Source: Streptosporangiales bacterium
GTDB lineage: Bacteria; Actinomycetota; Actinomycetes; Streptosporangiales; WHST01
Direction: 5' to 3'
Assembly: GCA_009379955.1 (NCBI GenBank)
Contig: WHST01000037.1
Location: 1-47,907 of the forward strand
DNA length: 47,907 nt
Shown: in pieces, positions 3,446-47,907 of the stretch
How the letters are laid out: each line of letters opens with the position of its first letter
Position numbering within the stretch: the first letter of the stretch is position 1
Made by a program: the position numbers and the translations under genes
The notes under the pieces: generated by a model
The model's database searches: none
Told to the model about the DNA's origin: nothing
What the model saw: only the letters and a program-made list of their open reading frames with translations

Positions 3446-3485
3446 AATCTGTGGGTTCGGGGTTCGAGTCCCTGGCGGCGCACCA
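3446..3485 (+). other. att-like site: 3' tRNA fragment (most like tRNA-Lys)
   Basis: The segment has the 3' anticodon strand TCTGT (3448-3452), a variable loop, and a T arm with stem CGGGG/CCCTG around TTCGAGT (3458-3474). It then has acceptor strand GCGGCGC (3475-3481), discriminator A and an encoded CCA. The 5' half is missing: bases 3436-3440 cannot pair with the anticodon stem, so this is not a working tRNA. The acceptor and T arm most resemble actinomycete tRNA-Lys. Such 3' fragments mark the far end of elements integrated into tRNA genes. The complete tRNA is expected to the left of this window in the same orientation. Confidence 0.7.
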
Positions 3486-3608
3486 TCACTGCAGGTCAGC
3501 GCCATGATCATCTAGGCAGCACGGGTGGTCATGGGCTCGATCCCACGGCTTACCCACCGCTTATCTCTCCATACTCTGACTCGTCAATAGGCTCGCCGCC
3601 TGCACCGT

Positions 3609-3693
3609 TTGATCACGTGCACGTGATCAACATGGACTTCACCTCGTGCCGGGACGAGGTGAAGTCCACGTCGGTGAGGTGAAGCTCCGCCGA
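3609..3693 (-). repeat. Compound palindromic repeat, copy 1 (reverse orientation)
   Basis: It has three parts. A perfect 22-base palindrome with half-site TTGATCACGTG spans 3609-3630. A hairpin with a 14-base perfect stem (GGACTTCACCTCGT) and loop GCCGGG spans 3634-3667. A GAGGTGAAGCTCC block spans 3676-3688, inside a GTCGG/CCGAC pair. Its 34-base hairpin is the exact reverse complement of copy 2 near 40739. It stands in a gene-free stretch between the att-like site and the EF-hand gene. Bases 3486-3608 show nothing I can name. Confidence 0.75.
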
Positions 3694-3788
3694 CGACCCT
3701 CGCAGCGCACCCGTGAACGGCTCCTCCGGCGGGTTGGCGTCGGGTCTGAGCGTATGCCTTGAGTCGCTTGACCTCGTTGTTGCGCAGG

Positions 3789-26829: not shown

Positions 26830-26996
26830 CTAGGCCGTGTCTGCTCATGGCGTTCGAGGCGAGCGGCGTCCAGGGCGGTCAATGGCGGCGGCGGAGGACG
26901 AGCTCGTACTGGGCATACTTGCGAGCTCCGACAACGCCGCCAGTGGCCGCCATGGGCGTCGCGTAGCCCGGACAGTCATGAGCAGACACGGCCTAG
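26830..26996. mobile_element. MITE-like element with 20-bp inverted ends
   Basis: CTAGGCCGTGTCTGCTCATG at 26830-26849 is matched by its exact reverse complement at 26977-26996. The 127-base interior has no gene but has further symmetry (GAGCTC copies and GGCGGC/GCCGCC blocks). A terminal CTAG at both ends could be a palindromic target duplication, as produced by some IS5-family transposases, with GCCGTGTCTGCTCATG as the true inverted repeat. It lies between the DUF3618 and bcp genes. It could also be one large stem-loop RNA. Confidence 0.6.
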
Positions 26997-27059: not shown

Positions 27060-27530
27060 ATGACCAGCTCCCGCCTGGAACCAGGCGACACCGCCCCGTC
27101 CTTCACCCTGCCGAACCAGGACCGCGAGAACGTCTCGCTCGCTGACTACGCCGGCCGCAAGGTCGTCGTCTACTTCTACCCGGCGGCCATGACGCCGGGC
27201 TGCACGACCCAGGCCTGCGACTTCCGCGACAACCTGAGCGAGCTCGAGGGCGCCGGCTACGCCGTCCTCGGCATCTCCCCCGACCAGCCGGAGCGGCTCG
27301 CCGAGTTCCGCGACGCGGAGAAGCTGACGTTCCCGCTGCTCGCCGACCCCGACAAGGCCGTGCTGCAGGCCTACGGCGCATACGGCGAGAAGCAGAACTA
27401 CGGCAAGACCGTCGTCGGCGTCATCCGCACCACCGTCGTCGTCGGCGAGGACGGCAGGGTCGAGCAGGCGATGTACGGCGTCAAGGCCACCGGTCACGTC
27501 GCCCGGCTGCTGCGCGATCTGGCCGCCTGA
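27060..27530 (+). CDS. bcp: Thioredoxin-dependent thiol peroxidase (BCP-type peroxiredoxin)
   Basis: A 156-residue peroxiredoxin that reduces hydrogen peroxide and organic peroxides. The core motif MTPGCTTQACDFRD (about 44-57) has the peroxidatic Cys and the resolving Cys five residues later, typical of the alpha-2 BCP subgroup. The 3' part from 27305 to the stop occurs again at 29151-29379 with few differences, so this copy is probably a hybrid rebuilt by recombination. Confidence 0.95.
   Translation: MTSSRLEPGDTAPSFTLPNQDRENVSLADYAGRKVVVYFYPAAMTPGCTTQACDFRDNLSELEGAGYAVLGISPDQPERLAEFRDAEKLTFPLLADPDKAVLQAYGAYGEKQNYGKTVVGVIRTTVVVGEDGRVEQAMYGVKATGHVARLLRDLAA
27305..27530 (+). repeat. Direct repeat, copy A (3' part of bcp)
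   Basis: These 226 bases reappear at 29151-29379 in the same orientation. By eye I count seven base changes and one three-base insertion (final residues DLAA against DLTAA). Six of the seven changes are silent; the other changes Ala to Pro. The repeats enclose an oxidoreductase gene and its MarR regulator. Confidence 0.9.
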
Positions 27531-29145: not shown

Positions 29146-29150
29146 TGCGC

Positions 29151-29379
29151 GTTCCGCGACGCGGAGAAGCTGACGTTCCCACTGCTCCCCGACCCCGACA
29201 AGGCCGTGCTGCAGGCCTACGGCGCGTACGGCGAGAAGCAGAACTACGGCAAGACCGTCGTCGGCGTCATCCGCACCACCGTCGTCGTCGGCGAGGACGG
29301 CAGGGTCGAGCAGGCGATGTACGGCGTCAAGGCCACCGGCCACGTCGCCCGGCTACTGCGCGACCTCACCGCCGCCTGA
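29151..29379 (+). pseudogene. Truncated second copy of bcp 3' end (direct repeat, copy B)
   Basis: It encodes the last 75 residues of the peroxiredoxin in frame to a TGA at 29377-29379, with no start codon, no active-site cysteines and no ribosome site. It begins right after the MarR gene. Identity with 27305-27530 is high, with mostly silent changes. A circular molecule carrying a bcp 3' fragment and the oxidoreductase/MarR pair, integrating by one crossover, would leave exactly this arrangement. Confidence 0.9.
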
Positions 29380-39711: not shown

Positions 39712-40716
39712 ATGACGTCGCCGTCCATGGAGTCGGCGGAGCGGTCCGACATCACGGTCGTCGGGCGCAAGCCCGTGCTGCTGTCGCGACTGAAGGTCGC
39801 CCTGTTCGTGGCCGCGGTGCTGGTGGTCCTGTTCCTCCTCGGCGACCTGGTCAACCTGGTACTCGGCGTGGCCGGCGGCGTGTTCGCCGTGACGCAGGTG
39901 TCCATCGTCAACCGCGCCCTCACCAGGCTCGCCGGTCCACTGAGGCGCCGGCGTGCGGCGAACCCCCGGCAGCCCGCGAACGTCGCGGACCGGATCGAGG
40001 TGCGCGCCGACCAGATCACCGCGTTAGGACCGCTCGGCGAGGTCGCCGGGCTCCGCCGGTCGGGCGACGGCGTGCTCACCGTCTCCGACCATCACGGCGA
40101 GCCCCACCTGCACGTCGCCGGCGTCGACACCGCGTCGATCGGCCTCCGCGGCTTCGACCCCGAGGCGGTCGGTCACGCGGCGCTCGAGCGCGGCTGGGCG
40201 TGGCGGTCGCCAAGGACCGGCGCCGTCGTCAGGCCGTACGGTGACGAGCCGGGTGTCGGCGTCGAGATCGCGCTGCGCGACGGCGTGCTCGGTGCCGGTA
40301 CCGCCACGAAGGCGTTCCTCGTCCCCGTCGTCGTCCTCGGGCTCGCGGCGTTCGCGACGATCGTCGCCGCCTTCTACGCCGACCTGACGACCGCGGTCAC
40401 GATCAGCGTCGCCGCGGGCGGCTTCGGCCTCGCGGTGCTGGGCATCATGGGCGCGACGTTCGCCGTCCGCCGGCTGTCGCCTCTCACGGTGACGATCGAC
40501 CGCGACCGGCTGGCGGTGCGATACGGCGCGATGCCTGCCGAGACGGTCACCCGGTGGTCGGTCGCCAGGGGCACCGCCGGCCGACGTTGGGTCCGGCTGC
40601 GCGACGAGTACGGCAAGGCGCGTGCGCTCGTCCCGCTGCGGCCGAAGCGCAGGGAGGTGCTGACGGCGCTGTGGTCGTACGGCTGGCCGGTGACAGACGA
40701 CAAGGGCCCCGGCTGA
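39712..40716 (+). CDS. Membrane protein with four helices, unknown function
   Basis: A 334-residue protein. Two hydrophobic pairs lie at about 29-62 (VALFVAAVLVVLFLLGDLV, VLGVAGGVFAVTQVS) and about 200-252 (AFLVPVVVLGLAAFATIVAA, VAAGGFGLAVLGIMGATFAV). Soluble beta-rich segments lie between them (about 92-195) and at the C-terminus (about 255-334), the latter resembling a bacterial PH-like domain (LTVTIDRDRLAVRYG). No catalytic residues stand out. GGGAGG precedes the ATG. Confidence 0.75.
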   Translation: MTSPSMESAERSDITVVGRKPVLLSRLKVALFVAAVLVVLFLLGDLVNLVLGVAGGVFAVTQVSIVNRALTRLAGPLRRRRAANPRQPANVADRIEVRADQITALGPLGEVAGLRRSGDGVLTVSDHHGEPHLHVAGVDTASIGLRGFDPEAVGHAALERGWAWRSPRTGAVVRPYGDEPGVGVEIALRDGVLGAGTATKAFLVPVVVLGLAAFATIVAAFYADLTTAVTISVAAGGFGLAVLGIMGATFAVRRLSPLTVTIDRDRLAVRYGAMPAETVTRWSVARGTAGRRWVRLRDEYGKARALVPLRPKRREVLTALWSYGWPVTDDKGPG

Positions 40717-40720
40717 CGGG

Positions 40721-40798
40721 ACGTCACCTCACGAACGTGGACTTCACCTCGTCCCGGCACGAGGTGAAGTCCGTGTTGATCACGTTAACGTGATCAAC
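40721..40798 (+). repeat. Compound palindromic repeat, copy 2
   Basis: The best-preserved copy. A hairpin at 40739-40772 has a 14-base perfect stem (GGACTTCACCTCGT) and loop CCCGGC. It is followed two bases later by a perfect 24-base palindrome at 40775-40798 with half-site GTTGATCACGTT. A partial CACCTCAC block precedes. It sits between the stops of two convergent genes (40716 and 40828). Confidence 0.85.
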
Positions 40799-40827
40799 GG
40801 GGACAAGCCGGGCGCCGGGTCAGGGGG

Positions 40828-46650: not shown

Positions 46651-47526
46651 ATGCCACTGCGAATCGGACTGGTCGGAGCGGGCCCCTGGGCCCACGAGGT
46701 ACACGGCGTCGGCCTCGCCGCGTCACCGCGGGTCGAGTTCGCCGGCGTGTGGGCGCGCCGGGCCGAGGCTGCGGCCGCACTCGCCGACGCCCACGGCGTG
46801 CCGGTGTACGACGACGTCGACACGCTCGTCGAGGCGGTCGACGCGGTGGCGTTCTGCGTCCCGCCGGAGGTCCAGGCGCGGCTCGCGACGCGTGCGGCGG
46901 TGCGGGGACGTCACCTGGTCCTCGACAAGCCGATCGCCGCCGATCTGGCCACCGGGGAGCCGCTGGCGACTGCCGCCGAGCGGGCGGGCGTCCACAGTGG
47001 CGTGTTCTTCACCTGCCGCTACCTGCCGGCGGCACGCGAGTTCCTCACCGAGGCCCATGCAGGGAAGTGGCACGGCGGACAGGCGACGTTCGTGTCCGGC
47101 GCGCTCCTGGCGGGCCAGTTCGCCGACTCGCCGTGGCGGCACGAGTCCGGCGCCCTCTGGGACGTCGGCCCGCACGCCGTCGAGCTGCTCGACGCCGCGC
47201 TGGGCCCGGTCACCGGCGTGCGCGCGGCCGCCCGCGGCCCGAGCGACCTCGTCCACCTCGTGCTCGACCACGACAGCGGCGCGGTCAGCCAGGCGTTGCT
47301 GAGCCTGCGCGTGCCGCTCACGACGACTCTCGCCGAGGTCGAGCTGTTCGGCGACGAGGGGAGCCACGCGTTCGCCCTCGCCGGGATGTCGGCCACCGAC
47401 GCGTACGGCGTGCTGCTCGGTGAGCTCGCCGACCGGGTCGAGGGCACCGGCGCCGGACCCGCCTGCGACGTCCACCGCGGCCTGCAGGTGCAGCGCGTGC
47501 TCGCGGCAGCCGGCGACCTGCTCTGA
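46651..47526 (+). CDS. Gfo/Idh/MocA-family oxidoreductase
   Basis: A 291-residue NAD(P)-dependent dehydrogenase. The Rossmann motif RIGLVGAGPWAHEVHGVGLA is at about 4-23, and the conserved LVLDKPIAAD at about 89-98 has the catalytic Lys-Pro. The C-terminal beta-sheet domain includes GALWDVGPHAVELLDAALG, with the usual Asp and His. It is somewhat shorter than sugar or inositol dehydrogenases (330-360). Substrate unknown. Divergent from the ECF42 run; repeat copy 3 follows. Confidence 0.92.
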   Translation: MPLRIGLVGAGPWAHEVHGVGLAASPRVEFAGVWARRAEAAAALADAHGVPVYDDVDTLVEAVDAVAFCVPPEVQARLATRAAVRGRHLVLDKPIAADLATGEPLATAAERAGVHSGVFFTCRYLPAAREFLTEAHAGKWHGGQATFVSGALLAGQFADSPWRHESGALWDVGPHAVELLDAALGPVTGVRAAARGPSDLVHLVLDHDSGAVSQALLSLRVPLTTTLAEVELFGDEGSHAFALAGMSATDAYGVLLGELADRVEGTGAGPACDVHRGLQVQRVLAAAGDLL

Positions 47527-47539
47527 GTCGTCAGTCGTC

Positions 47540-47611
47540 GGAGCTTCACCTCACCGAGGTGGACTTCACCTCGTCCCTGCACGAGGTGAAGCACCCGTTG
47601 ATCACGTTAAC
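47540..47611 (+). repeat. Compound palindromic repeat, copy 3 (interrupted)
   Basis: GGAGCTTCACCTC (47540-47552) is followed by the hairpin block GGACTTCACCTCGT...ACGAGGTGAA at 47561-47590, with a decayed outer stem, and by GTTGATCACGTTAAC at 47597-47611. There the palindrome stops abruptly; its second half is replaced by unrelated sequence beginning CTCGG. It starts 13 bases after the upstream stop codon. Confidence 0.8.
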
Positions 47612-47770
47612 CTCGGTCTTTCACACCTGGTGGGGCGACACGGGGTGTGGTGATGCGAAAGTGCCTTGTCTGCAAGGGAAACTGGGACTTGTCGACGGTC
47701 CTGTTGCTCTTGGAGAAAGACACTTCGCGGGTGAAGCGTAGCAAGCGGTCGCGGGTGAGGGTGAGCGCTG
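47612..47770. mobile_element. Probable end of an insertion sequence interrupting repeat copy 3
   Basis: The sequence changes character exactly where the palindrome breaks and holds no gene I can support. It looks like the non-coding end of an insertion sequence, itself cut by the IS3-type element to its right. The identity of this inner element is uncertain; no transposase part is preserved in the window. Confidence 0.4.
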
Positions 47771-47907
47771 TGGTTCCCCCGAAATCGTGGAGGGTTCCTT
47801 ATGCCGCTTCCCGGTCGGGGACGGCGTTCTCGTAGTTGATCGGGCTCATCATGCCTGCGGCGGTGTGCCGTCGGTCGTGGTTGTAGAAGCCGTAGCACCA
47901 GTCCAGC
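47771..47907 (-). mobile_element. IS3-family element, 3' end
   Basis: The transposase tail stops at 47799, and TGGTTCCCCCGAAATCGTGG just beyond it has the look of an IS3 terminal inverted repeat. The element continues past the window edge. The exact terminus near 47770 is estimated, because the partner repeat is not visible. Confidence 0.6.
47799..47907 (-). CDS. IS3-family transposase OrfB, C-terminal end (cut by window edge)
   Basis: The last 35 residues are present, starting LDWCYGFYNHDRRHTAAGMM and continuing SPINYE to the stop. WxxxYNxxRxHxxxxxxxPxxYE is the closing pattern of the DDE integrase core of IS3-type transposases. The rest, including the catalytic triad, lies outside the window, so whether the gene is intact cannot be judged. 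Confidence 0.85.
   Translation of the reverse strand, partial: LDWCYGFYNHDRRHTAAGMMSPINYENAVPDREAA

What the first reader, a model, noticed from the sequence alone, without database searches (positions are those of the whole stretch)
3609..3693. Dispersed compound palindromic repeat family, three copies in the window
Copies near 3609-3693 (reverse), 40721-40798 and 47540-47611 combine a 14-base-pair hairpin and a 22-24-base perfect palindrome sharing TTGATCACGT half-sites. The hairpin of copy 1 is the exact reverse complement of copy 2 over 34 bases despite being 37 kb away, and all are intergenic. This points to an active or selected repeat rather than chance: a REP-like element, a terminator family, or a genome-wide protein-binding site.
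Basis: seen in the sequence. Interest (0 to 1): 0.65.

Follow-up and report, generated by a model that had tools for sequence, protein, structure and literature searches.

The report
Intergenic palindrome repeats colonised by transposons
This actinobacterial genome carries over 100 copies of a small two-part DNA hairpin repeat, tucked between the tails of neighbouring genes, which probably helps stop transcription and which at least three families of jumping DNA use as a landing site, in every copy found.

Summary
The repeat is real and far larger than three copies. The genome (6.61 Mb, 225 contigs) holds 108 copies of the hairpin and 76 of the palindrome; reversed-pattern controls give none. 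The basic unit is about 80 bp at fixed spacing: CTTCACCTCACGAACGTGGAC, a 14-bp hairpin, then GTTGATCACGTNNACGTGATCAAC. Intact units sit between convergent genes in 28 of 43 cases (background 8 of 45), a few bases from both stop codons. Outer stem pairs covary.

A congener lacks the family: its matching gene junctions are empty or hold other hairpins. A second congener, an Acidothermales MAG, has about 20 copies with the same palindrome and a different hairpin, elsewhere in its genome. About 36 copies carry extra flanking hairpins; the best preserved lie inside a ~312-bp MITE-like unit.

Every genomic copy found of three mobile elements (44 ends of 44) lies in the palindrome centre. One is IS1380-family. 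Window copy 3 is half a palindrome cut by such an insertion.

No RAYT-type transposase was found, so this is not a canonical REP. Best reading: a BIME-like palindromic repeat acting as a two-way 3'-end hairpin cluster (probable terminator), colonised by site-specific transposons. The function is inferred; placement, pairing and target use are shown.

The parts
3577..3722 (-). Copy 1: remnant of the long mosaic (group II) form; boundaries approximate
   Evidence: Aligned with the other group II copies; it lacks the MITE-like terminal repeats seen in complete copies
3609..3630 (.). 22-nt perfect palindrome TTGATCACGTGCACGTGATCAA
3633..3668 (-). 15-bp perfect hairpin, loop 6
40722..40802 (+). Copy 2: intact basic unit (group I) between convergent genes ending at 40716 (+) and 40828 (-)
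40739..40772 (+). 14-bp hairpin, loop 6
40775..40798 (.). 24-nt perfect palindrome GTTGATCACGTTAACGTGATCAAC
47540..47611 (+). Copy 3: left part of a unit, directly after the gene ending at 47526 (+)
47564..47591 (+). 11-bp hairpin, loop 6
47597..47611 (+). Left half of the palindrome, GTTGATCACGTTAAC, cut by an insertion
47612..47731 (.). Arm of mobile element A (CTCGGTCTTTCACACCTGG...), always found joined to the palindrome half
   Evidence: 16 of 16 ends in the genome lie after GYTGATCACGTTAAC; right boundary estimated from L241 versus L226
47732..47907 (-). End of an IS3-family element apparently nested in element A (transposase C-terminus ends at 47799); runs off the contig
   Evidence: NCBIfam NF033516 IS3 transposase, E=0.00034, over the last 35 residues

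Best explanation
A high-copy intergenic palindromic mosaic repeat, similar in kind to REP/BIME elements. The unit is an ~80-bp cassette of two stem-loops that fold on either strand, placed just behind stop codons and mainly between convergent genes. SHOWN: copy number, fixed architecture, placement, pair-preserving changes, absence at matching sites of one congener, and use of the palindrome centre as the insertion site of three mobile elements. INFERRED: transcripts from both sides end or stall at, or are protected at their 3' ends by, the hairpin cluster (a two-way terminator or insulator). Such DNA is a harmless place to insert, so site-specific transposons have adapted to its invariant centre. 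INFERRED: the unit spread in this lineage by transposition or recombination; a subset rides inside a ~312-bp MITE-like unit with inverted ends GAGTTGTCAGT/ACTGACAACTC. The agent that spread the basic unit is not identified.
For: Copies: 108 and 76, controls 0. Architecture: in 40 of 41 intact group I copies the palindrome is in the same register. Placement: 28/43 convergent and 2/43 divergent, against 8/45 and 9/45 in the window; Fisher p = 1e-5 for convergent. The hairpin lies mostly 1-25 nt after one stop and the palindrome mostly 15-40 nt from the other. Folding: both strands fold better than all 200 shuffles, z = -5.6 and -5.5. Covariation: 17 cells with changes on both sides versus 6.0 shuffled, 0/500; 3-6 of 40 copies at each of three outer palindrome pairs. 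Congener G001: empty or different hairpins at syntenic junctions. Congener G002: 10 of 17 sites with both flanks called are convergent and none divergent, with a different CTTCACACG..CGTGTGAAG hairpin beside about half. Mobile elements: 44/44 ends in the palindrome. Tandem hairpins without U-tracts are proposed terminators in bacteria including a high-GC mycobacterium (PMC8355165).
Against: No T-run follows the stems, and the consensus scan finds no terminator at the copies it covered. No transcript data. Covariation control (a) is weak on two measures (36/500 and 40/500). The invariant palindrome core is more sequence-constrained than a terminator needs. Sites were chosen by motif, so part of the invariance is imposed. 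Gene calls come from a home-made coding scorer.
Confidence: 0.6

Rival explanations
1. The palindrome is a genome-wide binding site for a dimeric DNA-binding or topology protein (nucleoid protein, gyrase-like site, segregation factor), and the hairpin is secondary.
For: The core of 20-24 bp is identical in dozens of copies and is shared with G002 although the neighbouring hairpin differs. Convergent gene ends are places of topological stress (general knowledge).
Against: Absent from the congener G001 and from 392 of 394 genomes sampled in the class, so not an ancient housekeeping site. Outer pairs covary instead of being fixed. In about 28 copies the core is interrupted by an insertion.
Confidence: 0.2
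2. A true REP/RAYT system: units moved by a Y1 tyrosine transposase acting on single-stranded hairpins.
For: Copy number, intergenic place, hairpin pairs and lineage-specific bursts all resemble REPs.
Against: No Y1_Tnp (PF01797) match in the genome, while the same search rings in 5 of 14 control genomes including E. coli. No GTAG-type foot is seen in the consensus.
Confidence: 0.06
3. The whole family consists of decayed MITEs; the small group I units are trimmed leftovers of the ~312-bp group II element.
For: Group II copies have common ends GAGTTGTCAGT...ACTGACAACTC and a regular length of 309-314 bp. One is absent at the matching G001 junction.
Against: Group I copies have no trace of group II flanks outside the unit, and G002 has hairpin-palindrome units without the MITE flanks, so the unit seems older than the MITE. 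No clear target duplication was seen.
Confidence: 0.14

Closest known systems
REP sequences and BIMEs of enterobacteria and pseudomonads
   Same: About 100 or more short intergenic palindromes per genome, mosaic combinations of modules, location at gene 3' ends, and use as insertion targets by IS elements (PMC1525189; PMC2817692 listed)
   Different: No RAYT/Y1 transposase found, no GTAG foot, an invariant 24-bp perfect palindrome at a fixed distance from a second hairpin, and an actinobacterial host
IS1397/ISKpn1 (IS3 family) and IS621, ISPpu9 (IS110 family) that insert in REPs
   Same: Insertion only at one position in a repeated palindrome
   Different: Here one inserting element is IS1380-family, not among the five families listed in PMC1525189 (IS3, IS110, IS4, IS256, IS5); three elements share one site
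Tandem-hairpin (cluster) terminators without U-tract
   Same: Two strong stem-loops just after the stop codon (PMC8355165)
   Different: Here the sequence itself is repeated and conserved across sites, and it serves both strands

Membership tests
REP/BIME | Many short palindromic copies in intergenic DNA | tested here: met
   108 hairpin and 76 palindrome sites; only a few apparent overlaps with called genes
REP/BIME | Associated RAYT (Y1 tyrosine transposase) in the genome | tested here: not met
   PF01797: 0 matches, controls positive; a few contigs read as N and the assembly is 97.4% complete
REP/BIME | Conserved GTAG-type foot at the base of the hairpin | tested here: not met
   Consensus has none
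Canonical intrinsic terminator | GC-rich hairpin after a stop codon | tested here: met
Canonical intrinsic terminator | U-tract directly after the stem | tested here: not met
   No T-run in the consensus; scan finds none at window copies 2 and 3
Canonical intrinsic terminator | Transcripts end there | not testable with these tools
   Needs RNA 3'-end data
MITE (group II form) | Regular length with terminal inverted repeats | tested here: met
   Five copies with both ends found are 309-314 bp between TGTCAG and CTGACA
MITE (group II form) | Target-site duplication | tested here: inconclusive
   None evident
IS1380 family (element B) | IS1380-type transposase | tested here: met
   C-terminal 102 residues match NF033539, E=1.1e-20, below the full-length cut-off because partial
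IS110 family (element C) | DEDD recombinase (PF01548) inside the element | tested here: inconclusive
   The genome has two IS110 recombinases but neither is beside the palindrome; the interior of the full-length C copies is not in the assembly
IS110 family (element C) | Structured end RNA with an internal loop matching the target | tested here: inconclusive
   Fold has such a loop with GUGAUCAC and CACGUCAAC, but the pairing order does not follow the IS621 rule cleanly

The most novel reading that the evidence does not exclude
The palindrome is a shared docking site that unrelated transposons have converged on, one of them (element C) by RNA guidance. C's end folds into a bridge-RNA-like internal loop whose two strands carry both halves of the palindrome, and C enters almost only in one orientation relative to the hairpin (14 of 15 ends).
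Probability: 0.25. Interest if true: 0.6.

Novelty: new variant of a known kind. Interest (0 to 1): 0.45.

Why it matters
It extends the REP/BIME theme to an actinobacterial lineage without the usual transposase. It gives a natural set of at least 28 occupied sites showing three mobile elements choosing the same palindrome centre, including an IS1380-family member. It also offers a testable model for how conserved gene-end hairpins become safe harbours for transposons, and how one unit loses and regains partners between species.

Tried and rejected
Canonical REP/RAYT: rejected. Rfam families: no match to the repeat. Group IIC intron as the inserting agent: an intron D5 was found elsewhere (L145), but the insertion ends do not start like a group II intron. 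G001 hairpin hits (L130, L131) were inspected and look like coding chance matches. IS110 recombinase loci L266 and L267 were checked and are not in the palindrome. A search of 400 kb of G001 for its own repeated palindrome found none. Shared positions between G000 and G002 were sought with blastn and tblastn; the two nearby orthologue pairs are not at the repeat itself. Element A as a plain IS3 was rejected: its arms appear identically on both sides, and an IS3 seems nested inside it.

Full report
What was checked. Copy 1 has a 22-nt perfect palindrome and a 15-bp hairpin; copy 2 has a 14-bp hairpin and a 24-nt perfect palindrome. They share 38 nt exactly, in inverse orientation. Copy 3 has an 11-bp hairpin but only half of the palindrome. 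Perfect palindromes of this length are not expected in such a window (2 observed, 0.03 per simulation).

How many copies. The window is contig 37 of a 6.61-Mb assembly in 225 contigs. The hairpin pattern has 108 sites and the palindrome pattern 76, with none in the reversed-pattern controls. Flanks of about 100 sites were fetched and compared. Two forms exist. Group I (63 copies) is an ~80-bp unit: CTTCACCTCACGAACGTGGAC, hairpin TTCACCTCGTCCCNGCACGAGGTGAA, GTCCAC, palindrome GTTGATCACGTNNACGTGATCAAC. Outside it, homology stops. In some copies a second palindrome replaces the left part (L181, L182, L087). Group II (36 copies by a flank motif; copy 3 of the window falls in it only by that motif) has further hairpins on both sides. 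Its best copies are bounded by GAGTTGTCAGT...ACTGACAACTC, 309-314 bp between the inner ends, which looks like a MITE. Copy 1 of the window is an eroded group II copy.

Placement. With a simple codon-based gene finder trained on the window, intact group I units lie between convergent genes in 28 of 43 cases and between divergent genes in 2. Window background is 8 and 9 of 45 gene pairs (Fisher p = 1e-5 for convergent). When the left gene runs towards the unit its stop codon is mostly 1-25 nt away; when the right gene does, mostly 15-40 nt away. The unit fills the gap between two gene tails.

Structure. Both strands of copy 2 fold into two clean stem-loops, each better than all 200 shuffles. On 40 group I copies, 95.3% of cells pair. 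Seventeen cells changed on both sides against a shuffled mean of 6.0 (0 of 500 shuffles reach it), though two of the five measures are only marginal (36/500 and 40/500). The clearest cases are outer palindrome pairs, where C-G, U-A and others replace each other; the inner palindrome is invariant, partly because copies were chosen by motif.

Relatives. The same family of genomes holds only two others. G001 (100% complete) lacks the hairpin apart from coding chance matches and lacks the palindrome altogether. Parts of G001 are syntenic, and at matching junctions the unit is absent: L057/L201 has two convergent stops about 10 nt apart; L072/L209 has an unrelated hairpin; the group II copy between L127 and L095 is missing in L215. 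G002, whose contigs are a MAG labelled Acidothermales bacterium Bacteria.bin_12, has 20 palindromes with up to two mismatches, about half beside a hairpin of another sequence, CTTCACACG...CGTGTGAAG. Of its 17 sites with both flanking genes called, 10 are convergent and none divergent. No site was found in common with this genome. In 394 genomes of the class only one other has a single palindrome, and a scan of about 85,000 species genomes found only that MAG and one Acidothermaceae MAG, though records of the window's own genome may be left out there.

Insertions. Many units stop at contig ends. Three repeated sequences begin exactly inside the palindrome. A (CTCGGTCTTTCACACCTGG) has 16 ends and B (CTCGATTGTTCACGTGGGG) has 13. 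All 29 follow GYTGATCACGTTAAC, although the TA centre is found in only 12 of 40 intact copies. This fits a TTAA duplication with ends starting CC. B reads into the C-terminus of an IS1380-family transposase (E=1.1e-20). A has arms of about 120 nt; in the window and in L241 it is followed by what look like the two ends of an IS3-family element (only the window end was confirmed by a family match), which suggests a nested insertion. C (CACTGGGGGACCC) has 15 ends, all in GATCAYGTNAAC, 14 of them on the hairpin side. One complete C copy, L263, ends ...TTCGAATGA|ACGTGATCAAC, so two bases (AC) are repeated. The C end folds as a hairpin followed by an internal loop carrying pieces of both palindrome halves. 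This recalls IS110 bridge RNAs (PMC11208160), but no recombinase was found next to a palindrome, so it stays a lead.

What it is most likely. A BIME-like intergenic repeat. The hairpin pair at gene tails most likely ends transcription, or protects transcripts, from both directions. U-tracts are missing, so the usual terminator definition is not met; clusters of hairpins have been proposed to terminate without them (PMC8355165). REP sequences are known IS targets across five IS families (PMC1525189), so the association is of a known kind. The IS1380-family member, the shared site and the missing Y1 transposase are the new points.

Limits. The assembly is fragmented at exactly these repeats, some contigs read as N, gene calls are home-made, no expression data exist, and the agent that spreads the basic unit is unknown.

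Noticed in passing
window 27302-27527 and 29148-29373: Two direct copies of 226 nt, 96% identical, 1.8 kb apart.
   Followed up: no
window 26830-26860 and 26966-26996: 31-nt inverted repeat with arms 105 nt apart, CTAGGCCGTGTCTGCTCATG...; looks like a small element or its remnant.
   Followed up: no
window 3452-3486: Sequence resembling the 3' part of a tRNA (GGTTCGGGGTTCGAGTCCCTGGCGGCGCACCA), not called by ARAGORN, about 120 nt from copy 1; perhaps an integration-site remnant.
   Followed up: no
L145 (contig 205) 66-141: Group II intron domain match (Rfam RF00029, 54.1 bits) elsewhere in the genome.
   Followed up: partly
L040, L045, L088, L123 and others: The right-hand hairpin of the group II element has a variable but self-complementary stem between constant TTCAG and CTGACA ends, i.e. 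wholesale compensatory replacement.
   Followed up: no
L183 / L197: A single exact copy of the palindrome in an otherwise unrelated Acidothermaceae MAG.
   Followed up: partly
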